Origin: a virus
Length of the DNA stretch: 64,000 bases
Reading direction: 5' to 3' (one strand)
IMG/VR virus record: IMGVR_UViG_3300022932_000018
Location: 1-64,000 of that record
Below, piece after piece: positions 1-58,808 of the stretch; position 1 is the stretch's first letter, and every line of letters begins with the position of its first letter. The notes under the pieces are model-generated. The model was not told where the DNA came from and made no database searches. It saw only the letters and a list, made by a program, of their open reading frames with translations. The position numbers and the translations under genes were made by a program.

Positions 1-193
1 CTTGCTTGCCCTTGCGCTGCTCGTTCGGGTTGTTGTCCCACATCTCGGCTTTGAAAGTATCTGCAAGGAACTGTATGCGCTCTGCATCTGTTGCCAGTGT
101 GCGGTCGTATGGCTGCCCGTCGATTGCATCGAGAATGTACTGTGCGCGGCTTGCTGTTACTTGTTTGCTGTTGGTACGGAGTACGGTGTTCAT
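1..193 (-). CDS. Hypothetical protein, N-terminal part, cut by window edge
   Basis: The first 64 codons of a leftward gene whose remainder lies outside the window. It begins MNTVLRTNSKQVTASRAQYI and continues with a polar, helix-like sequence. I do not recognise the family. The start follows directly on the small gene at 204-326, as expected in a compact early phage operon. Confidence 0.6.
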   Translation of the reverse strand, partial: MNTVLRTNSKQVTASRAQYILDAIDGQPYDRTLATDAERIQFLADTFKAEMWDNNPNEQRKGKQ

Positions 194-3040: not shown

Positions 3041-3358
3041 TTACCAATCAGACTTGGTTTCTCCGTACTTCTCCAACTTGAGCGCTTCGTATTTGGAAAC
3101 GAGCTTCTCACGGCATTCTTTCACCCACTGCACATCGCGGTATGGCTTGGTTGCAACCATGAGCATCTTCAGTTCTCCGATTGGGTTGATGGTCGGCACG
3201 AAGTCCTGAATGTAGGCAGCCAGGCGGCGCCACTGATTCTCTGTGACAGGCTCGGGTTTCCAGTCTTGTGGCCGGAAGGTCAGCTGAGCGTAGCTGTGAC
3301 CAAGTATCTGCTTCACATCCTCGACTATTTGCTTGAGTCGGTCCATTTCTGCATCCAT
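3041..3358 (-). CDS. Hypothetical protein (105 aa)
   Basis: The start at 3358 (MDAEMDRLKQIVEDVKQILG) is chosen because the preceding gene ends at 3360. The ATG at 3412 would overlap that gene by about 50 bases. The protein is mostly helical, with charged heptad-like segments. Function unknown. Confidence 0.6.
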   Translation of the reverse strand: MDAEMDRLKQIVEDVKQILGHSYAQLTFRPQDWKPEPVTENQWRRLAAYIQDFVPTINPIGELKMLMVATKPYRDVQWVKECREKLVSKYEALKLEKYGETKSDW

Positions 3359-3359
3359 G

Positions 3360-3770
3360 TTATTTTCTTTTGCGCTTTCGCTGTGATTTTTTAACTCTGT
3401 TTTTTTCTGCATGCACTTTCATCCGGCGCTTCTGATGGTCTTTGTCGAACGACCGTAGGTATCGTTTTTCTGCCTCGATGCTGGCGACGATGTGATCGCC
3501 GACCATTGCTTTCCAGTTGTCCATTGCATGCCGGCGCATCAGCACGGCAAAGGCCCGGTCCCGGTAGCCAGGCTTTTCAATCTCCATGGTGGCGGTTATG
3601 CCGACCGCCCGGAGAACATCTGTTGTGAAGCCGATGTACTGGTTGGTGTAGTAGGTCCAGATTATGAAGCCCGGGTCAGGTGTATCGAATACCCGGGCGA
3701 CGGTCTTGTCCTTGTATTCGCCGGCACGGAAGTGCGACTGCATTGCCATGGTGCGAAGAAGGACTCTCAT
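3360..3770 (-). CDS. Hypothetical protein with a basic tail (136 aa)
   Basis: Starts MRVLLRTMAMQSHFRAGEYK at 3770, touching the end of the upstream gene. The C-terminal third is very rich in Lys and Arg, which suits nucleic-acid contact. No recognised domain. Confidence 0.6.
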   Translation of the reverse strand: MRVLLRTMAMQSHFRAGEYKDKTVARVFDTPDPGFIIWTYYTNQYIGFTTDVLRAVGITATMEIEKPGYRDRAFAVLMRRHAMDNWKAMVGDHIVASIEAEKRYLRSFDKDHQKRRMKVHAEKNRVKKSQRKRKRK

Positions 3771-4249
3771 TATCCAAACCTTTTTCTGGCATCTGCCTGG
3801 TTGTCGAAAATCTCCTGTACCCAACCTCCGTAGTATCGGCCATTATCCCTCTTTTCAATCTGGTTTTTGGGATTGCGATTGTTCCAATCCTTTATAGCGT
3901 CAGCGAAGTCAATTCCCGTTGCATGACCCATAAAGTGTGCGGGGCTGTGTTCCCCAGTGGCGGCATAGCCTCCCATCCAAAGGTCGTATTGCCGGGGTTC
4001 AGGTCCAGCATCTTTGATATGAGCCCAGTGAGTAGGATTGGTGCCTCCTTCGTCCATGAGCTTGCCTGCAGTCCAGCCATCTACTTCTTTGTAGTAGCTG
4101 CCATCAGCGTCGGTTTGTACCCGGCCTAGCGCGATAATTTTGCTCCCGGTCCTGTTGTTGACCGAAGCTGGCCAGAAGAACAGCACATCGGTTCCGTCTT
4201 TTGGTACTGTGGCAAACGGCTGCCAGTCGAGTTGGTTATTCATGCCCAT
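3770..4249 (-). CDS. DUF551-like protein (159 aa)
   Basis: The N-terminus has the pattern W-x-P-x-(4)-P-K-D-G-T-x-V-L, and a THW-like motif follows about 50 residues later. Both are typical of the short DUF551 phage proteins. Two further relatives lie at 45565-45849 and 60447-60761. An unrelated C-terminal extension follows the core. The biochemical role of DUF551 is not known to me. AAAAGAA precedes the start, and the gene overlaps the upstream one by 14 bases. Confidence 0.55.
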   Translation of the reverse strand: MGMNNQLDWQPFATVPKDGTDVLFFWPASVNNRTGSKIIALGRVQTDADGSYYKEVDGWTAGKLMDEGGTNPTHWAHIKDAGPEPRQYDLWMGGYAATGEHSPAHFMGHATGIDFADAIKDWNNRNPKNQIEKRDNGRYYGGWVQEIFDNQADARKRFG

Positions 4250-4613
4250 TTCTTTTATCGAGTTCCTGGTGAATTTTCTTATTGTGGTCTGCGACGGCCA
4301 CGATATTGAGAACGCCGACGGCCGCCGTCAAATCAGCTTCAGTACCGTCAATGATTGTCTCATTGAGCGCACATCTGCAGTAGATAGGTTGCTCGTAGCC
4401 GAGTTCTTTCATCTTTTTAGATGCGGTTTTCAGCCAATCCGAGGTGCTGATAAACCGTTGCCCTTCGGCGATAACCTCCTTTGTGCATTCGGCCATACAC
4501 TGGCCAACGTCCTTCCGGAATTGTTCTTCCGTCTTATCCGGATGGAACCAGGTGAACTCGGTTTCGTCACTCCAATCCCAGGCGCTTGCGCTGAATATTT
4601 GTGGGTTGTTCAT
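4236..4613 (-). CDS. Hypothetical protein (125 aa)
   Basis: An acidic, helix-rich protein starting MNNPQIFSASAWDW, with four scattered Cys but no clear zinc motif. It sits between a lipoprotein gene and a DUF551-like gene in the same leftward operon. Function unknown. Confidence 0.55.
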   Translation of the reverse strand: MNNPQIFSASAWDWSDETEFTWFHPDKTEEQFRKDVGQCMAECTKEVIAEGQRFISTSDWLKTASKKMKELGYEQPIYCRCALNETIIDGTEADLTAAVGVLNIVAVADHNKKIHQELDKRNGHE

Positions 4614-18689: not shown

Positions 18690-18899
18690 ATGAAAGCAAA
18701 GATATTCGCGATCGTTTCCCATGAGAAGGTTGAAATGGGGGAGAGACACTTTGAGGTTATGCCATGCGTTGGCGACAGCATAGAGCTGCAGAAGACCCGG
18801 TGGAAGGTGCTGAGCCGGTACTTCCCGGAAGGTGGTCCTGTTGAGCTCCTGTGCCTGCCTTTCCTTATTGGGCCAATATCTGATTTGCCGGAGTCGTAG
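18690..18899 (+). CDS. Small hypothetical protein (69 aa)
   Basis: Starts MKAKIFAIVSHEKVEMGERH at 18690. A longer reading from 18630 would run through the hairpin. Mixed alpha/beta composition, no signal peptide. It lies immediately before the tRNA-like locus. Function unknown. Confidence 0.55.
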   Translation: MKAKIFAIVSHEKVEMGERHFEVMPCVGDSIELQKTRWKVLSRYFPEGGPVELLCLPFLIGPISDLPES

Positions 18900-18925
18900 G
18901 ATTTGCTATATTTGTGGTGAGAGGT

Positions 18926-19009
18926 GGTGTAGAGTACCCGACCTCTAATCGGGAGGTCGCCAGTTCAAATCTGGCCTTGGGTGGGAGTACCCCAGCCAAG
19001 TAGCTCAGT
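18926..19009 (+). tRNA. Candidate circularly permuted tRNA-Arg(UCU), junction in the D-loop
   Basis: The 3' part comes first. D-loop G18G19 is at 18926-18927, A21 at 18931, D-stem GAGT at 18932-18935, and A26 at 18936. Anticodon stem CCCGA/TCGGG (18937-18941 and 18949-18953) encloses loop CCTCTAA. Variable AGGTC, T-arm GCCAG-TTCAAAT-CTGGC (18959-18975), acceptor CTTGGGT (18976-18982) and G73 follow. After a 10-nt linker comes the 5' part: acceptor AGCCAAG (18994-19000), T8A9, D-stem GCTC (19003-19006), A14G15T16. The acceptor pairs 6/7 (G-G at 2-71) and the D-stem pairs 4/4 with one G-U. T8, A14, G15-C48, G18, G19, A21, T54, T55, C56 and A58 are all present. Odd points: C33 instead of U33, no encoded CCA, and no known bacterial ligase step. 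Confidence 0.6.
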
Positions 19010-19054
19010 AGAGAATCCGCTCTCTCATTTGGACCTGATTCCGCATTCAGATTA

Positions 19055-19080
19055 AACCCGCTACTTGCGGGTTTTCTTTT
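19055..19080 (+). terminator. Intrinsic terminator after the tRNA-like locus
   Basis: AACCCGC-TACTT-GCGGGTT followed by TTCTTTT is a textbook intrinsic terminator. Its 5' arm and loop (19060-19067) are also complementary over 8 nt to 18997-19004 within the tRNA-like 5' part. Confidence 0.8.
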
Positions 19081-19082
19081 GC

Positions 19083-19092
19083 CCGTACTATA
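19083..19092 (+). promoter_or_regulatory. Late promoter motif, connector operon
   Basis: CCGTACTATA, 7 nt before the ATG at 19100 and directly after the terminator, so the connector genes start a new transcript. Confidence 0.5.
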
Positions 19093-34174: not shown

Positions 34175-37100
34175 TTATTTTCTGTACCGGCCTTTCCCGG
34201 ATGTTGTGACCTGGAATTTGCTGCCGCCATACTTGACCTGCATCTTCTTCTTGCGAATCTGTTGGAGCTTGCGGTTGATAGCAGACACATCGGCCTCGCT
34301 CACTCCGAGAAGGGCCATGCCGTCTACGAGGGCGCCGATAGTTGCAGCCTGGCGTTCGTTTGGTGCAATATCAACTCTGGTGACCTTCTGATTGAACATA
34401 TTACCCTTGTACCTGTCCGTCTGCCCGGTGATGGCCATGCGTGCTTCCGAGCCAGCGTTTGCTGCTGTCTGGAGCGGCCCGCCAAACATACCCCACTGAC
34501 CGTAATCGTACTCACCATACTTGGCAGGGTCGTAAACAGAGAAGAAGCCGGGCTCTTTCTCGCTGGCACCATTCATGCCTTTTATCAGGTAGTTGGAAAG
34601 CTCATTCAGCTTTGTCTGAGTGAAGCCGCCCATACCGGCGAAGAAGTAATCCGAGATAGAATTGGCTGCAAACTTCTGCAGGTTCTTCGCGGTATCTGTT
34701 TCTTCTGCGAATTTATCATCGTCGTCATCCCACATGCCCAGCATAGATGCTAGGCCGCGTGCGGCTGCCGTAGTGGCGATGCCTATCACAAATATCTTGA
34801 CGGCATTGAAGATGGCTGCTTCGGCCATGGTTGCCGCAAGAGAACGGGCTGCCTCGGCTTTTACATTCTTGTTGCCAAAAAGCAGCTTCTGAGCGTCGTT
34901 GGTCATGCGTACCCGCTGGTTGGTAGCAAAGCCTGAGTATGGCAGGAATATGCGCAGCATGGTGCGTCCCCAGCCTCCCTTGCGGTACATCTGGCCCATG
35001 GACGACGCATCGTTGGCATTCTGGCTACGGCTGGTCATTTGCTCAGCGTATGCGGCTGCCTCCGCGTTCGGGCTGTTGTGTTCTTCTGCCCAATTGATGC
35101 TATCGATATCTACGCCTTGCTCTTTCAGGCTCTGCATGTAGAAAGCAAGCCATGAAGTACGAGCCACCTTTACGTCGGAATAAACCAGGGCAGCCATGGT
35201 AGCATCAGCAACTCGTTGACCGATTTTATCTACCTGGCCGAGTGTCCGCTGGAAGCTGTTGCCAAATTCGGTGCGGTCTACCCGGCTGAAATCTGTGTCC
35301 CTGTTGTAGCCGGCTTTTGTTGATCCACGCTGACCGATGTTGAACTGGTCGAACAGTGGCAGGTTGGTACCTATCTGCCATGCTTTAGGGAACAGTGAGA
35401 AGTCACTGCCCAGGTTGGCCATGGTGTTGCCGGCGACAGAAACGTACTGCTTTGCCAGCTGAGAGAAGGAGCCGAGTGCGATACGGGCCGCTTTGGCAGC
35501 AGCTATATTGGCACCCTTCTCAACCATTCTTTCAACTTGGCTTACTTGTGGTGTTTTACCACGCTGTGCGTCTGCGGCTGACGTGAGGGCTGTCTGAACA
35601 AGCTCTTTATTCTGAGGCGTACCGAATACAGTTTCAGCATTCTTGTTGTCAAGGAACATGCGAATCTGGGCCTTTGCCTTATTGGTTTCTACATCGTAGT
35701 TGGTTTCGTAGAACCGGTCGGCAGCTGCAGAATCGAAGTCAAGGTCGAGTACTGCATTCTGACCTGGCAGAACGAAGTACCGGCGCCGGCGGTTCTTGGT
35801 GCCGGCGGGCGTTTCGTCAATCTTGCGGCGGGAGAAGGTCTGGTCAAACATCGTGGATGCAGCAGCCTGGTCTTTCACTCCGCGCAGCTTACTGTAAGTA
35901 ATAGGCGTGTAGTTATTGACTTCCTCGAAAGGAATATTGCTGTATATCTCACTGTTTTCTGCAACGGTTTCTCTGCGGTCGGCGAACTGCTGTTGCCAGA
36001 ACTCAACTATTTTCTGGTTGTCGGCGCCGTTCTCCATGGCAATCAGTTTGGCTTCTACCTCTGCCGGGCTGTTGGAACCCTCAAGCAAAGCATTATAGGC
36101 GTCGCTGACGTACTTTCCTTTCTGGTTGTCGTTCTTGTCGCCACTGTTATTGAGTCTGTCAGCAGTCTGGGCAACGAGCCCCTTGATGCGTTCGAACTCT
36201 GCGGCGTCCTTCTCGGCACCTTCATTGAAATTCATCTGAGAAAGAGCGTAGACACCACGCATGACCTTGTTCTCCGCATCCATCACGGCATCAGGCATGT
36301 TCTTTACCAGCTCCTCGTAGGCCTTTATAGCGTTGCTCTGTGTTTTCTGAGCACGCGCATGACCGTTGAACAACTCAGACTGGCCGGATAGGCGTTGAAG
36401 TTCTGCAGCTACACGGGTGTTCTTGGTGATAAATTCATTCAGCAGGTTGATGCTGGCAATCTCACCGGCCACAGCTTTTGCAATGCCGCTTTTCAGTTCA
36501 GCAGGATTTACACCGGAGTCCTTCATCAGCTGTATAAGATGGTCCATGTTTCTTTGGACGATGGACAATGCCGACATATCACCGGCATCCGTGAAGGAGT
36601 CGTTGTATGTGATGTTGTTTATTACATCGTTCAGCTTCACCAAGGCAGGCATTTCAAGGTCGGTAGTATCAATCTGGCGGATGTTGTCGAGCACTTCGGT
36701 TTCCTCGGCAGATAGGTTGCTGATATCGTAGTTGTCCAGGTCAATCAACTGGTCGTCTACGTAGGCTTTCATCAGCCTCAGACGTTCTTCTGCATTGGTA
36801 ACGGCAGCGGCGGCACGGTCGTCAGCTATCTGAGCAAGCTGGTCGTCAATGGCTGCCTGTATATCTGCTGGAGATGCGGTTGCAGGGTCAATGGTGCCGG
36901 CTGCCACAAGGTCTGCGAATACCCGGTCACGGCGGCGTTGCTCCTGCTCTTTCTTGGCAACTTCCATTTCAGCTGCTGCAGATTGAACGTAGGCTTCGAT
37001 GTCGGTGATAGTAGCCTGGTAGTCTGCGTTGGCGACAGTGCCGTTCTTTGCATTGGCTTTGGCGTTACTGATTGTGCTCAGCACGCGGTCAGCCATTGCC

Positions 37101-40100
37101 AGGTACTCGTCAAGGTTCGCAAGTACATCTGGTTTGATACGAAGGAATGCCTTTACGGCGTCAACATTGTTCGCAGCTTTCTGAACAGCTTTGGAGCGGA
37201 CAGCAGCGCGTATTTTCTTGGCTACGGATTGGGCGTCTTTCAGCTTGGCATCGTACTCTGCATCCGCAAGTATCTTATCGGTGTAGGTAATGAAAGCGTC
37301 GAGTTTGGCAGCGTTTTCTCCTACGGCAAGTCCACGCTTGATGATAGCAGCTACCTGCTTTGGCGTAACGGTGCCGGCTGCTTGTGCTGTTGCAAGGTGT
37401 TCCTTTATACGGTCGATGGCTGTTTCGAATGGAGCCTGCGCAATTGCTTTGCCCTGGCTGATTCCTTCTTTGCGGCCGCGACGTTCACCGGTAACCTCAC
37501 CTTCCTGCTGACCCTGGGTACGGCCGGCTCTGAATCCTTCCAATGCTGCACGGGCTTCCATGCGGATTTGGTTCTTCAGGTCTGCCATGCCAGTGGTATC
37601 GGTACGGGTGGCGTTATTGATGGTCGTGCCAATGGAAGTCTTAGCCCGTGGCTTGACGTACTCGTTTACCAGCTCCTCGAACGCAGCTTGGTTGAAGATG
37701 CTGGCGTCGTGATTTGCCTTGATAGCACGCACGGCATCATTGATGGCTGCACGCTGGGTCTTGCCGGCGGTCTGTGCTTCGATTACTGCCCGGAATCCTT
37801 CTGCGATTGCAGCTGGTGTAAGGCCTATCCGGTCCAGTGCTTCCTGCCTGCGGGTGAACTCAACGTTTGGCTTTGCCTTGTCGAGTATCTGCTGTGCTAC
37901 TTCTGGCCCTACCGTTGCGGCAAGTCCTCTCAGTATTGCAGTTTCGCTTGTGCCACGGGCGAGTTTCTTCTCAGCCATCTTTACGAGCTCAGGGTCTATC
38001 TGCGGCGCGAGGGAATACATGGTCAGGCCATTCTTCTTGGAACGGGCAGACATGGATTCGGCAAAGCGAAGTGGTGAGAATACTTCGTCAGGATATACCT
38101 GGCTGATATAGTCGTTCAAAACTCCGTACATCTCTGCTACGGCGCCAGTCAGCTCATAGGTGCCTCGTCCTTTGTGAACCAGTCCGCCAACGATGGCCTT
38201 GTCCGCTGCTGATATTCCTGCCGGGTTCTCCAGCATATCAATCATGATGCCTTCAGCGAAAGGTTCGGATGCGTTCTGGAATGCTTGCGTTTGCTCTACA
38301 AGGTCCAGCATGTTCTGGTACACATCGGGCGCTTTTGCTGCCACGAGTTCTACCATCTGCGAACCTCCAACCGAGTTGGTAATACGGGAAGCGAAGTCGC
38401 TGCTGTTGACGGATGAATAAACACCGGTGAGTTCTCCGGAATCCTCGTCGCTGGAACCCCGGCCGCGTTGCCCGGCTGTTTCTGCAGCAATGGCAATGCT
38501 TTCGTCAATGGCGTCGGCGCTCCGGTTCTGGGAGCGCTCTGCCCTGGCTGCTCTTGTCAGGGTGTTGGGAGCGTCGATGATTTCCTTGATGCGTCTTGTC
38601 AGGCTGTTGGCAGAGCTGAGTTCTGCGAGGACTGCACGGCTGTATGATTGCAGGCTGATGTTGGCAAACTGCTGTGCGGTTACCTGGTTGAAGCCGGCTG
38701 ATTTCTTGAGTGTATCCCAAAGCGATTTCAACCATGCGCTGAATCCCTTTCTGTTTTTCTGCGGGATATTCTGAGCTTCCTGTTCGATGGTCTGAGCGAG
38801 TATTTCCTCTGCGATGGCAGCACGGGCTTCGGACTTATCTTCTGCCTGTCCATATTCTATGGCATAACGTTGCCACATGGCTACATCGGATGCGCTCATG
38901 CCAGCCGGAGCGGCCGGTTGTTGACCGTCCAGCAATGCAGAAGCATACTGATAGGCGTCTGTTTCCTTTGCAAGCGCTTCGCCACGGGCATATATGTCTG
39001 GAGCATTTACCCGTGCCCAGGCAGCCCATACATGGCCAAGCTCATGGATAGGTGTTGATGGGCTTGCTTCCTCCACGTTGATGAACATGGTATTGGAGCC
39101 AGCATCATACCACCCTTTCGGCGCCGTTTCTTCTGCGAAGGTTTCAGGCAGGAATTGCCGGGCAGATTCGTTGTCTACGACGACAAGCGTTGGCTCACCC
39201 TTGAACTTGTTTTTGATGCGCTCATGCAGTGCCATTACGCCTTGGCGTGTCCAGCCGGCACGATTCATTGTCGCGTTGTCGGTGAAGATGTTCTGCGTGC
39301 CTGGGCGAACTTCAAACAGGTCTATTTCAGGGGCGGCTTCTTCTACTGGAACTGCTGTTTCTGCTGGGCTATTAGTTTGCGGAGTGTTTTGAACTTCGCG
39401 GCTAATAGCTTCTCTAACTTCTCCTGATAGGTCAATTTCACCTCTCCGGACTGCTTCGTAGTAGGCGTTCTCGAGGTCTTGCTGGTTGCCATATTCTTGG
39501 TTTAAGAGTTCTTTTTCTTTGGCTTGTAATTGCGCTTCTTCCTGTGCCATCACGATGTCGGCTATGCCATCGTTGAGTGGGAACCCTGTAAGTTGTTCAA
39601 ACTTGTCTTCTGCGAGGCGCTGATTGCTAGAAGGGCGTGATCTTACTGCCTGGTCAACTCCGCCGGGGAACCGGTACATGAAATCGACAAGGTCTTGTGG
39701 AGTGATATTGAGGCCGTTGTTGCCGTCCATATCAGCACCATTCAAGTCAATAGCAATCTGGTCGAGGCTCGCCGCTTTCTGTCCCTTCTTTCCAATGTAA
39801 TTCGCAGCGATGCCGCGATTCATATTGTTGCGGTCGCCGAACTGATTGAAAGAATCCTGCGTTGTGGTGAATCCACCCTGGTCTACGATTGCCTGCTCGA
39901 TGGTGTCGAGCATTGCTGGCTCTTGCGGCATATTCCGCCAGATGGTCGCTATCTCAACAGGGTTGGTAGAGTTCTCGATAATGGAAGCCTCATACTCCTG
40001 GCGGTTCACTCCGGCATCTGGTTGTGGTGCCAGAGCGCCTTGCAGGAAATTGTATTTGGCAGCGGCACCTTCGCGCTCTTGCTTGTTCGCAGGACGCTCG

Positions 40101-43100
40101 TTACCGGTATCAACGTTCCGAACAGTGAGGCCGGCCGGCGTATTCATGACGATGCTGTTACCAACGATGGCGTCCACGAATGGCTGAATTGGTGGTGCGA
40201 CAGGTTCCTCGGCTTGCTCGATAGTCTGCGCTTCAAGCTGGCCAAGTAAATCACCAAACTCAGGCGTGATTTCAAAGTTTGGTTCTGCTTCTTCCGCAAC
40301 TACTGGTTCCGGCGTTGATTCAGATGGTGCTGCATTCAGTTGTTCCTCGGTTACTACGATGGGTTGGAACTCTCCTTCCGTGTCTGGGGTTTCTGCTACG
40401 GTGGGCTCAAGTACTGTAACTGTTTCCCCTGTGGTTACCGGATCCGCAATGACTTCCTGTGCTACTGGTGGAACTACAATATTGTAAGCGCCCTCGGCCA
40501 GAGTAGATGGCACATTCTCGCCGCGCATCCTTTGCAGGGCATCCATCACTTCTTCTTTACTCCGGCCTTCATCTACCAGGCTACGGGTTGCAGCTACCAT
40601 GGCACGCATGGCTGAGGTGGTAATTCCGGCATCCATTTCAGCTTCGCTTACCGGGCGATCGTTCTCTACCTCTGCATCGTAAATATCACGGGCGGTAATG
40701 ATGTCGATAGCGAAGTCAGATGTAGTGCCAAGCAGGTTGGGCTCTGCAGCATCAATAGTGGCATCGTGTTCTTCCTGTACGGCTACGGAAAGTTCGGGCG
40801 CCGTGAGAGGACGTGCAATGTCCATGGTTGTTTGTCCTGTTGCCAGTGCTGCAGCTATGCGCTTCTTGCCGTCGATTATTTGACCGTCCTTTCCTATTAC
40901 GACGGGATTCGTGTTGGCGGTAATTGACTGTGATGCCGGGGTTGAAGAAGCCTGAATGTAACCTCGAACCTCTGGGTCGTTTGCATACGGCGTGATATCT
41001 ATGCTCTCCGTTGTGTAAGGTCCATTGTTCAAGATGGCAGAAGTCTGTGCGCCTCTTAGGCTGGCTGCTGGTGTGTATCGTTGAGATATTGCCGCCATTT
41101 CTACGCCAGAAACTGTGCGTCCACGAAGGTCTGTGCCTTCTTCAATTTGCTTTATCGCAAGTGTAGACGCGGCAGCTTTTGCCTGCAAGTCTTGTACTTG
41201 TGCCTCTACTGCCTGTCCGGCCTCGCGAGTGAAAATGCCGTTGGCATCACGGGCCATCAGCACCTGAGTTTTCTGCCCGGTATTTACGTCAGTTATTTCT
41301 TCGTACCGGATTTCAGGCGCAATAGCTGCAAGTGCTGCGGCTGTTTCCTGGAGTCGGGCTTGTTCAATTCCGTACTGCACAGCTTTTGGCCCTACCAGAG
41401 CCTGTCCGCCCTTATCCTTTGGCTGGATTGCTCTTGCTACAAAAGGTTCTACCCGGCCAATAAAATTCTGAATCTGCGAGGCCTGTTCAGGCGTCATTCT
41501 TCCGGACTGCAGCTGCTCAGTGATGGATTGCCGGAAGTTTTCAGGGCTTGCCATCGCCTGGTAGATTGCTGCAGCCTGGCTGGTTGGTGCCTGCGTGCCG
41601 TGTTGCCCGATGCTAGACATCATGCCGCCGGCTACGGTCCCAACAAGTCCTTCATGGGCGGCTTGTTCTACCGCGCCTTTCCAGTCGAATGGTTCGGTGC
41701 GGCCTGCGTCATTCCAATCTTGGTAGCTGTCTGCTCCAGAACCAAAAACTTCTTCTACGCCTTCGCCAAGCGATTGCCCGAGCCGAGGACTTACATTTTG
41801 CTTGATGAACTGGCCCAATTTCTGAACACGGCCTGTCGCAATTACTTCGTCAGCACTGTTGACAATTCGATTTGAAAGATTACTCCCGGCACCTCTCCGG
41901 GCAAGCGGGTTTGCAAGGCCTTCAATCAGGATATTGACCGACGCTCTTTGTGCTGCCTTTGCAGATGCTTGCTGTGGGGTATATCCGGAATCAAGTGCCT
42001 GTTTGAAATAGCTGGCATAGATAGTCGGGTATGCGTAGGCAGTAGTATTTATTACGTTATCGATGTAGCGTGTTGCTACACGGGCTGGCATAGACTGGAG
42101 CGTAGCGGCAAGGCCATCAAATGCTTTTTGCGATAGCGTGCCTTCATTAGCAAGGGCACCGCGCAAAGCTGCTGATGTAGCACCTCGTTGAGCGGCATTT
42201 GCAGCTGGCGCCCAATTACCTATGCTTGCACCTTTAGAAAGAGCACCGAGCCCTACTGATGGTCCAAGAAACTCGCCTCCTGTGCGGGTGGCGGTTCCAA
42301 GGATCGTGTCGAGATACGCAAAGGGATTGTTAGTAAGCGTTGCTGTTGTGAGGTCGGCTTCATTGGTTGGTCGGTTGCCGCCAAGATATTGTTCGCTTCC
42401 AGCCAGCCATTGGGCATGCGTATTGGCCACATTCCTTGCGGCACTTTCGTTGCCCGTCGCATCATACAGAGGCTCCAATAGTCCGCGTCCGAGGAAAGCC
42501 CCGAAGTTTGACGATGCACGCAAGCCTTCTTTTGCAGCTCCCCAGATGTAGCCAACAGGTTTCAGTACGCCGCCGGCACCGTCGTGCAAGAAATCTGTGA
42601 TGTCTTGATTGTAGTTGTTGGCTTGCTGAAATTCATTCTTCTTGCCCTGCACAATCGCATCGGCAGCTTGTTTAAATTTCTTTTCGTCGCCGCCGGCCAA
42701 TTCAATTACTTCACGCTTAAAAGTGGGGTTGAATTGTTTTGTTTCCTGGTTGGTGTAAACAAGGTCTTTGCTGACTGGCGTTTTCAGGTCTGTGAATCGT
42801 GTAGCGTTGCTCTGAATGCCACGCAAAGCAGCATCTGAAGGGTCGCCAACGATGGAACGGAACCGGTCGTCGTCATAATCAGGGAGTGCCTTTGCGGCTT
42901 TCTGTTGTGCCTTTTGCTGGCCGTAACGGGCGGTGGCTGCCAATGTATTTTGATATGCCTTACGGTCGGCATCGCTTATCCCTGCTGCAAATTCAGTTGC
43001 CGGCTTTGCGGCTGCCGCAACCTGGCTGTTGAATGCTTGTTGGTATTGCTTCAGCTGCTGTTGCCGTTGCGCTTCTGCGGCGCGTGCCTGCTGGATAGCT

Positions 43101-43255
43101 GGAGTGTTTGAAAGTGCTTGCTGTTCGGCAGCTACATTGCCAATAATCCCTTGCTCTATCTGTGTGCGTTGGTCGCCAAAAGAAGTAGGGAAAGGGATTG
43201 CTTGCGGAGCCGGTTGTGACGGCTGTTTCTTGGTGTCTTTATCTTTTGCTCCCAT
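34175..43255 (-). CDS. Giant polyvalent virion protein (3026 aa) with ParB-like and zincin domains
   Basis: One uninterrupted 3026-codon frame. Near residues 765-815 it has a ParB-like motif (VIGKDGQIIDGKKRIAAALA). Near residue 1405 it has a gluzincin-type zinc protease site, PIHELGHVWAAW (HExxH). Long coiled coils fill about 1800-2300, and a C-terminal segment near 2815-2840 is hydrophobic enough for a membrane helix. This mixture of DNA-binding-like, protease and structural parts is characteristic of the 'polyvalent proteins' of phages and conjugative elements. They are thought to be injected with the DNA and to counter host defences or assist entry. It overlaps the ejection-type gene upstream by one base. 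Confidence 0.65.
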   Translation of the reverse strand: MGAKDKDTKKQPSQPAPQAIPFPTSFGDQRTQIEQGIIGNVAAEQQALSNTPAIQQARAAEAQRQQQLKQYQQAFNSQVAAAAKPATEFAAGISDADRKAYQNTLAATARYGQQKAQQKAAKALPDYDDDRFRSIVGDPSDAALRGIQSNATRFTDLKTPVSKDLVYTNQETKQFNPTFKREVIELAGGDEKKFKQAADAIVQGKKNEFQQANNYNQDITDFLHDGAGGVLKPVGYIWGAAKEGLRASSNFGAFLGRGLLEPLYDATGNESAARNVANTHAQWLAGSEQYLGGNRPTNEADLTTATLTNNPFAYLDTILGTATRTGGEFLGPSVGLGALSKGASIGNWAPAANAAQRGATSAALRGALANEGTLSQKAFDGLAATLQSMPARVATRYIDNVINTTAYAYPTIYASYFKQALDSGYTPQQASAKAAQRASVNILIEGLANPLARRGAGSNLSNRIVNSADEVIATGRVQKLGQFIKQNVSPRLGQSLGEGVEEVFGSGADSYQDWNDAGRTEPFDWKGAVEQAAHEGLVGTVAGGMMSSIGQHGTQAPTSQAAAIYQAMASPENFRQSITEQLQSGRMTPEQASQIQNFIGRVEPFVARAIQPKDKGGQALVGPKAVQYGIEQARLQETAAALAAIAPEIRYEEITDVNTGQKTQVLMARDANGIFTREAGQAVEAQVQDLQAKAAASTLAIKQIEEGTDLRGRTVSGVEMAAISQRYTPAASLRGAQTSAILNNGPYTTESIDITPYANDPEVRGYIQASSTPASQSITANTNPVVIGKDGQIIDGKKRIAAALATGQTTMDIARPLTAPELSVAVQEEHDATIDAAEPNLLGTTSDFAIDIITARDIYDAEVENDRPVSEAEMDAGITTSAMRAMVAATRSLVDEGRSKEEVMDALQRMRGENVPSTLAEGAYNIVVPPVAQEVIADPVTTGETVTVLEPTVAETPDTEGEFQPIVVTEEQLNAAPSESTPEPVVAEEAEPNFEITPEFGDLLGQLEAQTIEQAEEPVAPPIQPFVDAIVGNSIVMNTPAGLTVRNVDTGNERPANKQEREGAAAKYNFLQGALAPQPDAGVNRQEYEASIIENSTNPVEIATIWRNMPQEPAMLDTIEQAIVDQGGFTTTQDSFNQFGDRNNMNRGIAANYIGKKGQKAASLDQIAIDLNGADMDGNNGLNITPQDLVDFMYRFPGGVDQAVRSRPSSNQRLAEDKFEQLTGFPLNDGIADIVMAQEEAQLQAKEKELLNQEYGNQQDLENAYYEAVRRGEIDLSGEVREAISREVQNTPQTNSPAETAVPVEEAAPEIDLFEVRPGTQNIFTDNATMNRAGWTRQGVMALHERIKNKFKGEPTLVVVDNESARQFLPETFAEETAPKGWYDAGSNTMFINVEEASPSTPIHELGHVWAAWARVNAPDIYARGEALAKETDAYQYASALLDGQQPAAPAGMSASDVAMWQRYAIEYGQAEDKSEARAAIAEEILAQTIEQEAQNIPQKNRKGFSAWLKSLWDTLKKSAGFNQVTAQQFANISLQSYSRAVLAELSSANSLTRRIKEIIDAPNTLTRAARAERSQNRSADAIDESIAIAAETAGQRGRGSSDEDSGELTGVYSSVNSSDFASRITNSVGGSQMVELVAAKAPDVYQNMLDLVEQTQAFQNASEPFAEGIMIDMLENPAGISAADKAIVGGLVHKGRGTYELTGAVAEMYGVLNDYISQVYPDEVFSPLRFAESMSARSKKNGLTMYSLAPQIDPELVKMAEKKLARGTSETAILRGLAATVGPEVAQQILDKAKPNVEFTRRQEALDRIGLTPAAIAEGFRAVIEAQTAGKTQRAAINDAVRAIKANHDASIFNQAAFEELVNEYVKPRAKTSIGTTINNATRTDTTGMADLKNQIRMEARAALEGFRAGRTQGQQEGEVTGERRGRKEGISQGKAIAQAPFETAIDRIKEHLATAQAAGTVTPKQVAAIIKRGLAVGENAAKLDAFITYTDKILADAEYDAKLKDAQSVAKKIRAAVRSKAVQKAANNVDAVKAFLRIKPDVLANLDEYLAMADRVLSTISNAKANAKNGTVANADYQATITDIEAYVQSAAAEMEVAKKEQEQRRRDRVFADLVAAGTIDPATASPADIQAAIDDQLAQIADDRAAAAVTNAEERLRLMKAYVDDQLIDLDNYDISNLSAEETEVLDNIRQIDTTDLEMPALVKLNDVINNITYNDSFTDAGDMSALSIVQRNMDHLIQLMKDSGVNPAELKSGIAKAVAGEIASINLLNEFITKNTRVAAELQRLSGQSELFNGHARAQKTQSNAIKAYEELVKNMPDAVMDAENKVMRGVYALSQMNFNEGAEKDAAEFERIKGLVAQTADRLNNSGDKNDNQKGKYVSDAYNALLEGSNSPAEVEAKLIAMENGADNQKIVEFWQQQFADRRETVAENSEIYSNIPFEEVNNYTPITYSKLRGVKDQAAASTMFDQTFSRRKIDETPAGTKNRRRRYFVLPGQNAVLDLDFDSAAADRFYETNYDVETNKAKAQIRMFLDNKNAETVFGTPQNKELVQTALTSAADAQRGKTPQVSQVERMVEKGANIAAAKAARIALGSFSQLAKQYVSVAGNTMANLGSDFSLFPKAWQIGTNLPLFDQFNIGQRGSTKAGYNRDTDFSRVDRTEFGNSFQRTLGQVDKIGQRVADATMAALVYSDVKVARTSWLAFYMQSLKEQGVDIDSINWAEEHNSPNAEAAAYAEQMTSRSQNANDASSMGQMYRKGGWGRTMLRIFLPYSGFATNQRVRMTNDAQKLLFGNKNVKAEAARSLAATMAEAAIFNAVKIFVIGIATTAAARGLASMLGMWDDDDDKFAEETDTAKNLQKFAANSISDYFFAGMGGFTQTKLNELSNYLIKGMNGASEKEPGFFSVYDPAKYGEYDYGQWGMFGGPLQTAANAGSEARMAITGQTDRYKGNMFNQKVTRVDIAPNERQAATIGALVDGMALLGVSEADVSAINRKLQQIRKKKMQVKYGGSKFQVTTSGKGRYRK

Positions 43256-46230: not shown

Positions 46231-46641
46231 TTATGCCGTGAGGCGGCGGTTAGCATCATCTAGTGTTATCTTTCCAGTAGTCAGCAAGTGAATAAGGAAA
46301 TCCCCAGCAGAAACATTCATAGCCTTGCTTGCAAAGCCTGTGAATGGCTTTTCTACCAAGTATGAAAACCCGCACTCGTAAGACCTTTTGCCGATGCTTT
46401 GGCTAAATCCAAACATACCGCAAGCAGCCATGAGTTCTGCTATTGTAAATGCTGAAAAGAACTCGCCAACAGTTGTCCCGTCATGACTTGTCGAGTCTGC
46501 AATCCTGAGATGTGTACCATCTATAACGCTATAGTAGATGTTGCCGTTATTATCATAACTAAGATGAGTTTCTTGCTGCAATCCTAGTGCTTTTAGCTTT
46601 CTTGCCTGCTCCAGCGTGCAGACTTGTTGTTCTATTTTCAT
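46231..46641 (-). CDS. Hypothetical protein, paralogue of 58419-58808 (136 aa)
   Basis: Begins MKIEQQVCTLEQARKLKALG. The gene at 58419-58808 starts almost identically and both carry an AFTIAELxA segment in the middle, so they are diverged copies. TAAATTTG lies just before the ATG. Function unknown. Confidence 0.6.
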   Translation of the reverse strand: MKIEQQVCTLEQARKLKALGLQQETHLSYDNNGNIYYSVIDGTHLRIADSTSHDGTTVGEFFSAFTIAELMAACGMFGFSQSIGKRSYECGFSYLVEKPFTGFASKAMNVSAGDFLIHLLTTGKITLDDANRRLTA

Positions 46642-46694
46642 ACTTTCCAAATTTACCCCCACGCCTGCTATTAACAGGGCGCAAGGTTGTGAGA

Positions 46695-47441
46695 TTAATT
46701 GTGTTGAGGTCTGTTTTTCATTTTCTCTTGCCAGGCGTGGATGATTTCTTCGTCCGATTTGCATATGTCTCCGTAAATCTCGGTCTTGGCATCAATCCGA
46801 ACCAGTTTCTTGCCCGAGGTTGTATCTCTGTTTGGCATCAGAACGACCTTCTTCTCCTTGTGCGGGTTGTGTAAGCGTCCTTTGTTGACTGTGATTTTTG
46901 GCATGGGAGTTGGTTTTGGTTTTGGTATGCGTGGCTCTTTTGGCCCTTTTGTCCGGCGCCATCCCTTCTCGGTCATTATCATTTCCTTGCCGGAACTGTT
47001 GACCTTGATGTCTCCGATCTTGTATTTAGCGCCTCTGGTGCGCAGTCTAACGAGTCCGTTTTCTGTCATTTGGTAGACACCATTGCTATAATAGCGCAAC
47101 TCCCCCATTTTTACACGAAAAGCATTGGGAATGTAAGGGATATCGACCCCACTCTTGCGCATATTTTGCACCCTTTTATGGACAAGAGAAGCCTGTATGC
47201 CGAGGTGCGCAGCGATTTTACTGGCTTTTGTGTCGGCATAATTGGCAAGGATATACTCGTTTTCCTTCCGAATCAATTCGGTCTCCGGTCTGGTTGGTTT
47301 GCGCTTCCTAGACAATCCCATCTCCTTGCCTGCTGCATTGATGGTGATATGAGCACGTTTCAAGTGCTTTGACATCTGACGAAGCGTCATTGTTTCCCAA
47401 TGGTCGCGAATGTATTTCAGGTCTTTTTTTGATAGATTCAT
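46695..47441 (-). CDS. DNA-binding-like protein with helix-turn-helix segments (248 aa)
   Basis: The first 100 residues look like two helix-turn-helix units (YIRDHWETMTLRQMSKHLK, then IAAHLGIQASLVHKRVQNMR). The rest is a very basic, Pro/Lys-rich linker and a small C-terminal domain. A transcription or packaging regulator is plausible. It overlaps the upstream gene by four bases. Confidence 0.55.
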   Translation of the reverse strand: MNLSKKDLKYIRDHWETMTLRQMSKHLKRAHITINAAGKEMGLSRKRKPTRPETELIRKENEYILANYADTKASKIAAHLGIQASLVHKRVQNMRKSGVDIPYIPNAFRVKMGELRYYSNGVYQMTENGLVRLRTRGAKYKIGDIKVNSSGKEMIMTEKGWRRTKGPKEPRIPKPKPTPMPKITVNKGRLHNPHKEKKVVLMPNRDTTSGKKLVRIDAKTEIYGDICKSDEEIIHAWQEKMKNRPQHN

Positions 47442-58248: not shown

Positions 58249-58422
58249 TTAGATAGAAATAAGGTGCACCGTATGCGTGGCGGTCATGTCGAATTTCAGC
58301 AGATGCATTCTACCTCGGGCCTGCTCTTTTTGCTCGGCGTCGCTTGGTTGATAGCCATCATGCTTTGAGGTGTCACAGGTTACTCTTCCTTGCGCATCCA
58401 CTATCTGGTAGTAATACTTCAT
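58249..58422 (-). CDS. Small hypothetical protein (57 aa)
   Basis: Starts MKYYYQIVDAQGRVTCDTSK at 58422, overlapping the preceding gene's end. Beta-stranded then charged. Function unknown. Confidence 0.5.
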   Translation of the reverse strand: MKYYYQIVDAQGRVTCDTSKHDGYQPSDAEQKEQARGRMHLLKFDMTATHTVHLISI

Positions 58423-58808
58423 TGTTCCGGTGCGGGGGTTGGGGTGAGGGAGGTGTTGCATTCGGCAACAGTAAGGTAGCCGAGTTCTATGAGTTTTATC
58501 ACATGGTCAGCGAGCCATTGGGCATTCCATATCTGAGAATCGAATGCTTCAACATCTTCTAGCATTTCACGGCTGATGCGGTCGCTGTCATGATATATTG
58601 CAGCCATTGCACCCAATTCTGCGATAGTGAAAGCATCGGCCTCATGCGTTCCTTCAACCGGTGCATCTTTGGAAAGAATGCCAAACCATGAGTTCCCATC
58701 AGGGAATCCTACATAGGCATAGCAGAAATAAGATGTTGACTGTGCTATCCCTAATTGTTGAAGCTTCCTTGCCTGCTCGACTGTGCACACTTGTTGTTCT
58801 ATTTTCAT
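58419..58808 (-). CDS. Hypothetical protein, paralogue of 46231-46641 (129 aa)
   Basis: MKIEQQVCTVEQARKLQQLG is nearly the same start as in 46231-46641, and both have an AFTIAELxA segment. The C-terminal halves differ. Likely an ancient duplication within the phage lineage. Function unknown. Confidence 0.6.
   Translation of the reverse strand: MKIEQQVCTVEQARKLQQLGIAQSTSYFCYAYVGFPDGNSWFGILSKDAPVEGTHEADAFTIAELGAMAAIYHDSDRISREMLEDVEAFDSQIWNAQWLADHVIKLIELGYLTVAECNTSLTPTPAPEQ

What the first reader, a model, noticed from the sequence alone, without database searches (positions are those of the whole stretch)
18926..19009. Circularly permuted tRNA-Arg(UCU) in a phage, with the break in the D-loop
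Seen in sequence: the order is D-loop(G18G19)-D-stem3'-anticodon arm-T arm-acceptor3', then linker GGAGTACCCC, then acceptor5'-T8A9-D-stem5'-A14G15. After rejoining, all helices form (acceptor 6/7, D 4/4 with a G-U, anticodon 5/5, T 5/5). T8, A14, G15-C48, G18, G19, A21, T54, T55, C56 and A58 are all present, even though they are spread over both halves. Two unrelated decayed tRNAs would not be expected to match each other in acceptor and D stems. Established knowledge: permuted tRNA genes are known from some algae and archaea and are matured through a circular intermediate. A bacterial virus copy would need an unknown joining step. Odd: C33 and no encoded CCA.
Basis: partly seen in the sequence, partly recalled or inferred. 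Interest (0 to 1): 0.92.

Follow-up and report, generated by a model that had tools for sequence, protein, structure and literature searches.

The report
Phage RNA mimicking a rearranged tRNA
A bacterial virus carries a small RNA gene whose parts are those of a transfer RNA in rotated order; it is real, but it looks more like a tRNA look-alike (as bacterial Y RNAs are) than like a tRNA gene that is cut and re-joined into a working tRNA.

Summary
A covariance model made from 20 real tRNAs, rotated at the D-loop, hits only this place in 64 kb (18928-19008, 58.1 bits, E 2e-17). ARAGORN calls the rejoined sequence tRNA-Arg(UCU). A Bacteroidetes-type promoter (TTG-N19-TATATTTG) just 5' of the D-loop break and a terminator define a predicted ~165-nt transcript. 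Its ends pair in a 10-bp stem and the linker caps the acceptor stem.

The near-complete 67.6-kb genome has no Ro60, RtcB or tested RNA ligase. The sealed acceptor and C33 argue against maturation. Rotated tRNA-like RNAs are already known in bacteria and phages: Y RNAs (YrlA). I found ten phage examples; six of nine records also encode Ro60. All keep a closed D-arm; the eight compared fit an opening at position 26 better. The window fits a D-loop opening better by 15 bits and lacks the Y RNA double stem. Best reading: a Y-RNA-like tRNA mimic with a new opening point. No homologue with covariation was found; the nearest relative has unrelated sequence in the slot.

The parts
18885..18914 (+). 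Promoter-like site TTG-N19-TATATTTG (Bacteroidetes -33/-7 type; also a 9/12 sigma-70-like match)
   Evidence: boxes unchanged in relative L001; consensus match only, no RNA data
18918..18927 (+). Basal stem, 5' strand (UGAGAGGUGG), at the predicted 5' end of the RNA
   Evidence: pair probabilities 0.74-0.98; leader duplex P 0.06 against shuffles
18926..18936 (+). tRNA-like D-loop 3' part (G18 G19 .. A21), D-stem 3' strand GAGT, base 26
   Evidence: sequence, model R1
18937..18953 (+). Anticodon arm CCCGA-CCTCTAA-TCGGG, anticodon TCT, C33
   Evidence: competing hairpin GACCUCU/GGAGGUC favoured
18959..18975 (+). T arm GCCAG-TTCAAAT-CTGGC
18976..19000 (+). Acceptor 3' CTTGGGT, G73, linker GGAGTACCCC, acceptor 5' AGCCAAG: one capped hairpin
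   Evidence: pair probability about 1
19001..19008 (+). T8 A9, D-stem 5' strand GCTC, A14 G15
19008..19033 (+). Probable remnant of a second tRNA copy (D-loop to anticodon arm), 19/26 identical to 18929-18954
   Evidence: P 0.0003-0.0016 by shuffles
19017..19027 (+). Basal stem, 3' strand (CCGC-U-CUCUCA)
19054..19080 (+). Intrinsic terminator AAACCCGC-TACTT-GCGGGTTT then TCTTTT
   Evidence: 3' arm and T run conserved in L001

Best explanation
The locus is a small phage non-coding RNA gene whose product is a tRNA mimic. A ~165-nt RNA is transcribed from its own promoter and ended by a terminator (predicted from sequence). Its two ends pair in a basal stem; inside, a cloverleaf of Arg(UCU) type is laid out in rotated order, with the opening in the D-loop and the acceptor stem closed by a hairpin, so that there is no free CCA end and it cannot be charged (inferred). 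Proteins that recognise the body of tRNA would bind it, and it would act as a decoy or competitor (most likely) or a tether for such a protein, as proposed for the tRNA-like domain of bacterial Y RNA (inferred). It probably arose from a tandem tRNA pair whose outer halves were lost or reused for the basal stem (moderate evidence).
For: Rotated cloverleaf at 58.1 bits, the only hit in 64 kb. Promoter motif right before the D-loop break and terminator after it, kept in relative L001 although the insert differs. Whole transcript folds better than all 200 shuffles, z -4.4; ends paired and acceptor capped, the same plan as YrlA. Rotated tRNA mimics exist in phages next to Ro60, and Rey has one without Ro60. 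No ligase in the genome. If the second copy is real, the inner unit keeps 20 of 21 pairs while the outer copy decayed (inference).
Against: No homologue and hence no covariation. No expression data. The nearest relative has other, not significantly folded sequence in the slot (z -1.5). The anticodon arm and the D-stem are not the favoured pairs in the energy model. The basal stem alone is not significant (P 0.06). No Ro60 in the genome; host unknown. The decoy role is untested.
Confidence: 0.5

Rival explanations
1. Relic: a fragment of a tandem tRNA-Arg pair was captured in this variable slot; the halves fit because both come from one gene, and it has no present function.
For: Second-copy remnant at 19008-19033; slot content differs wholly between near-identical phages, so the insertion may be recent; C33 and the G2:G71 mismatch; no conservation elsewhere.
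Against: Only the inner, rotated unit is intact while copy 2's D-loop and anticodon stem are broken; promoter and terminator frame it exactly; ends and linker pair.
Confidence: 0.27
2. True circularly permuted tRNA gene: ends are joined by a host enzyme (such as RtcB), the linker is removed by RNase P and RNase Z, CCA is added, and tRNA-Arg(UCU) decodes AGA.
For: All tRNA helices and most conserved bases present after rejoining; junction in the D-loop as in type I algal genes, whose leader and trailer also pair near the junction (PMC3978253); AGA makes 9% of Arg codons in the genes counted.
Against: No ligase in the genome; no canonical bulge-helix-bulge; linker hairpin seals the acceptor; C33; AGA and AGG are minor codons, so no strong need; no bacterial precedent known to me.
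Confidence: 0.13
3. Member of the Y RNA (YrlA) family proper, working with a host Ro60.
For: Same order of T arm, capped acceptor, TA, D-stem 5'; weak RF02553 match (15.6 bits); Y RNA without Ro60 occurs in Rey.
Against: Far below the family threshold of 69; D-arm opening differs; no double basal stem as in phage Y RNAs; no Ro60.
Confidence: 0.06
4. The tRNA 3' half is the attP core of the phage's tyrosine integrase, matching a host tRNA gene.
For: The genome encodes an integrase (PHROG, E 5e-14, at about 63.9-64.5 kb), and tRNA genes are common integration sites (own knowledge).
Against: The integrase gene is about 22 kb away on the circle; the relative lacks the sequence; only one genome contig has the 27-nt segment, and ARAGORN calls no tRNA there; it does not explain the rotated 5' half.
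Confidence: 0.04

Closest known systems
Bacterial/phage Y RNA, YrlA (Rfam RF02553; structure PDB 6CU1)
   Same: Circularly permuted tRNA-like fold, capped acceptor, ends paired in a basal stem, found in phages
   Different: YrlA opens at the anticodon stem (Rfam consensus, Rey); the phage Y RNAs seen here open at position 26 with a closed D-arm and a double basal stem, often beside Ro60. The window RNA opens in the D-loop, has a single 10-bp basal stem and no Ro60
Circularly permuted tRNA genes of red/green algae and Thermofilum (type I, D-loop 20/21)
   Same: 3' half before 5' half, short intervening sequence, junction in the D-loop, leader and trailer near each other
   Different: No canonical BHB motif, no splicing endonuclease or ligase in the phage, acceptor sealed by the linker hairpin, C33
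Permuted tmRNA (Rfam RF04321)
   Same: Rotated gene order of a tRNA-like RNA in bacteria
   Different: The window RNA has an anticodon arm; no match to this family in the window or near the element

Membership tests
Circularly permuted tRNA gene | 3' half upstream of 5' half, cloverleaf restored on rejoining | tested here: met
Circularly permuted tRNA gene | Bulge-helix-bulge at the junction | tested here: not met
   Predicted fold shows a 1-nt bulge and a 4x10 internal loop around a 4-bp helix, not two 3-nt bulges (by inspection)
Circularly permuted tRNA gene | Joining enzyme available | tested here: inconclusive
   None in the phage; host unknown
Circularly permuted tRNA gene | Circular intermediate and mature tRNA in cells | not testable with these tools
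   No RNA data
Y RNA (YrlA) | Match to RF02553 | tested here: not met
   15.6 bits against 69; note that phage elements beside Ro60 also reach only 31-46 bits
Y RNA (YrlA) | tRNA-like T, acceptor (capped) and D arms in this order | tested here: inconclusive
   T arm and capped acceptor met; local D-arm has 3 pairs and no GG, D-loop-open reading 15 bits better
Y RNA (YrlA) | Ends paired in a Ro60-binding stem | tested here: inconclusive
   Ends pair, but not the double stem with asymmetric loop seen in phage Y RNAs
Y RNA (YrlA) | Ro60 (TROVE) gene nearby | tested here: not met
   No PF05731 match in G000; present in 6 of 9 comparison records

The most novel reading that the evidence does not exclude
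A bacterial virus encodes a true circularly permuted tRNA gene with a D-loop junction, matured to tRNA-Arg(UCU) through an RNA circle by a host ligase; it would be the first such gene known to me in bacteria or their viruses.
Probability: 0.13. Interest if true: 0.92.

Novelty: new variant of a known kind. Interest (0 to 1): 0.55.

Why it matters
It suggests a second way, besides YrlA, of turning a tRNA inside out into a closed, unchargeable look-alike, here with the opening in the D-loop and no Ro60 in the same genome. If such RNAs are decoys for tRNA-cleaving defences or tethers for nucleases, phages that carry them make that idea testable. If instead the RNA is rejoined, bacteria would have an unknown tRNA-joining pathway.

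Tried and rejected
Ordinary tRNA on either strand: ARAGORN none. Homologues by flanking proteins: one close relative with a different insert, 80 distant relatives without the element. DNA patterns of the element and of its promoter-leader: no other copy. Weak YrlA hit in the distant relative MW202828: degenerate tRNA-like genes in normal order, rejected by eye. Mycobacterium phage Rey as a second permuted tRNA gene: it is a YrlA-type element. Compensatory change: not testable with one sequence. attP reading: disfavoured (integrase far away). L001's insert as sharing the basal stem: leader duplex not better than shuffles (P 0.41).

Full report
1. Observation. The sequence at 18926-19009 is as described. 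ARAGORN finds no tRNA in the native window. Rfam's tRNA model sees only a sub-threshold 3' part (24-25 bits, threshold 29). When the 5' part (18992-19009) is placed before the 3' part (18926-18984), ARAGORN calls tRNA-Arg(tct). To give the rotated order its own statistics, I took 20 phage tRNAs, rotated them at the D-loop with a random 10-nt linker, and built a covariance model R1. It has one hit in the 64-kb window: 18928-19008, model 1-81, 58.1 bits, E 2.3e-17. In about 1.1 Mb of other phage loci, strong R1 hits occur only in ordinary tRNA arrays (phi38:1 and Rey); elsewhere the best is 16 bits.

2. Surroundings. The element lies between virion genes of a phage distantly related to phages of Flavobacteriia (terminase 29-32% identical to a Manatee Spring podovirus, Maribacter phage Panino and Flavobacterium elemo phages). 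Upstream is TTG-N19-TATATTTG (18885-18914), one of six such sites on this strand of the window. Its expected start lies at about 18919-18922 (inference), immediately before the D-loop break, so a normal 5' half is not part of the predicted transcript. Downstream is an intrinsic terminator (19054-19074, then TCTTTT). The nearest relative (L001; flanking proteins 94.5-99.8% identical) keeps the promoter boxes, the leader GGTGAGAGG and the terminator's 3' arm, but has a wholly different sequence between them, with no tRNA or YrlA match. The slot is therefore variable.

3. Structure. The predicted transcript folds far better than shuffled sequence (z -4.4). The ends pair (UGAGAGGUGG with CCGC-U-CUCUCA, probabilities mostly above 0.9), and the acceptor continues through the linker as a capped hairpin (probability about 1). 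Two points weaken a clean cloverleaf in the unprocessed RNA: a competing hairpin GACCUCU/GGAGGUC (0.98) excludes the anticodon arm, and the long-range D-stem has p about 0.2. The leader duplex alone is P 0.06 against shuffles.

4. Origin. The 3' flank 19008-19033 matches 18929-18954 in register (19 of 26; P 0.0003 without the consensus GTAGAG, 0.0016 by local alignment), and both appear to have C33. This suggests a tandem tRNA pair. If so, the outer part of copy 2 has decayed while the inner, rotated unit keeps 20 of 21 pairs, which argues for selection on the inner unit (inference).

5. The known kind. A BLAST hit in Mycobacterium phage Rey led to another rotated element, which Rfam identifies as YrlA-like (43.6 bits). 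YrlA is the tRNA-mimicking bacterial Y RNA; its structure superposes on tRNA with a circular permutation (PMC11472068), and its ends form the stem that binds the Ro60 orthologue (PMC8394870). A pattern scan of IMG/VR (T arm, short capped acceptor, TAGCTCAG) gave 94 places: 84 overlap ordinary tRNAs, 10 are rotated tRNA-like elements. Six of their nine records encode Ro60 (PF05731), for example RNA at 3312-3378 and Ro60 at 3539-4558 of one contig. Phage Y RNAs are thus real and not rare.

6. Same or different? From the same 20 tRNAs I built model R2, opened at position 26. Eight phage Y RNAs score higher with R2 than with R1 (for example L163 56.2 against 42.0), and they carry a double basal stem with an asymmetric loop. 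The window scores 58.1 with R1 and 43.2 with R2. So the window RNA is opened in the D-loop, unlike them. It also lacks Ro60 in a genome whose ends overlap by 139 nt with 4 mismatches and falls far below the YrlA threshold. It works like, but is not shown to be, a Y RNA.

7. Against maturation to a tRNA. No RtcB, RNA_ligase or RNA_lig_T4_1; no canonical bulge-helix-bulge; sealed acceptor; C33. The algal and archaeal permuted genes have a BHB motif; algal ones are shown to mature through a circle, and type I has its junction at 20/21 in the D-loop (PMC3978253). The geometry fits type I; the processing signals do not.

8. Mechanism. Seen in sequence: rotated cloverleaf, promoter and terminator motifs. 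Predicted: paired ends and capped acceptor. Inferred: a stable RNA that cannot be charged but is bound by tRNA-recognising proteins. Competition with an anticodon nuclease has been suggested for YrlA (PMC7790460) and is the role I find most likely here, with a tether for a nuclease as second.

9. Limits. Chen et al. 2014 and Wang et al. 2018, the primary papers on YrlA as a tRNA mimic, were not held, so whether anticodon arms in phage Y RNAs or D-loop openings are already described there is unknown to me.

Noticed in passing
L001 3813-3985 against window 18918-19084: Between near-identical flanks (promoter, leader, terminator 3' arm) the ~150-nt insert is completely different in the nearest relative: a swap or hypervariable RNA slot.
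   Followed up: partly
L163 2974-3050, L148 11302-11380, L127 3298-3373, L146 8259-8334, L173 3735-3809, L157 4031-4106, L121 1124-1198: Phage Y RNAs (several beside Ro60) keep a full anticodon arm with U33 and plausible anticodons (Arg UCU, Ser GCU, Thr GGU, Lys UUU/CUU, Thr UGU), i.e. complete tRNAs opened at position 26.
   Followed up: partly
L089 402-471 (Mycobacterium phage Rey 57992-58061): Unannotated YrlA-type element directly after tRNA-Asn in a phage with RtcB but no Ro60 match.
   Followed up: partly
L093 4410-4833: GOLLD RNA (182 bits) in Rey that contains the annotated tRNA-Ser.
   Followed up: no
window 1-139 and record end 67439-67577: Record ends overlap by 139 nt with 4 mismatches at the extreme end, so the genome is probably circular or terminally redundant and complete.
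   Followed up: yes
L108 3-626 (record about 63902-64525), - strand: Tyrosine-integrase-like gene (PHROG integrase, E 5e-14).
   Followed up: no
window 18932-18940 and 18985-18993: Direct repeat GAGTACCC in the D/anticodon stem and in the linker, perhaps a trace of how the linker arose.
   Followed up: no
window 46231-46764 and 58419-58808, - strand: Two similar small genes (MKIEQQVCT.EQARKL motif), a paralogous pair.
   Followed up: no
window 34175-43255, - strand: A 3026-aa protein without PHROG match, probably a giant virion protein.
   Followed up: no
L109 1953-1979: Candidatus Azambacteria contig with a 27-nt exact match to the variable loop, T arm and acceptor where ARAGORN calls no tRNA; possibly an intron-split tRNA.
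   Followed up: no
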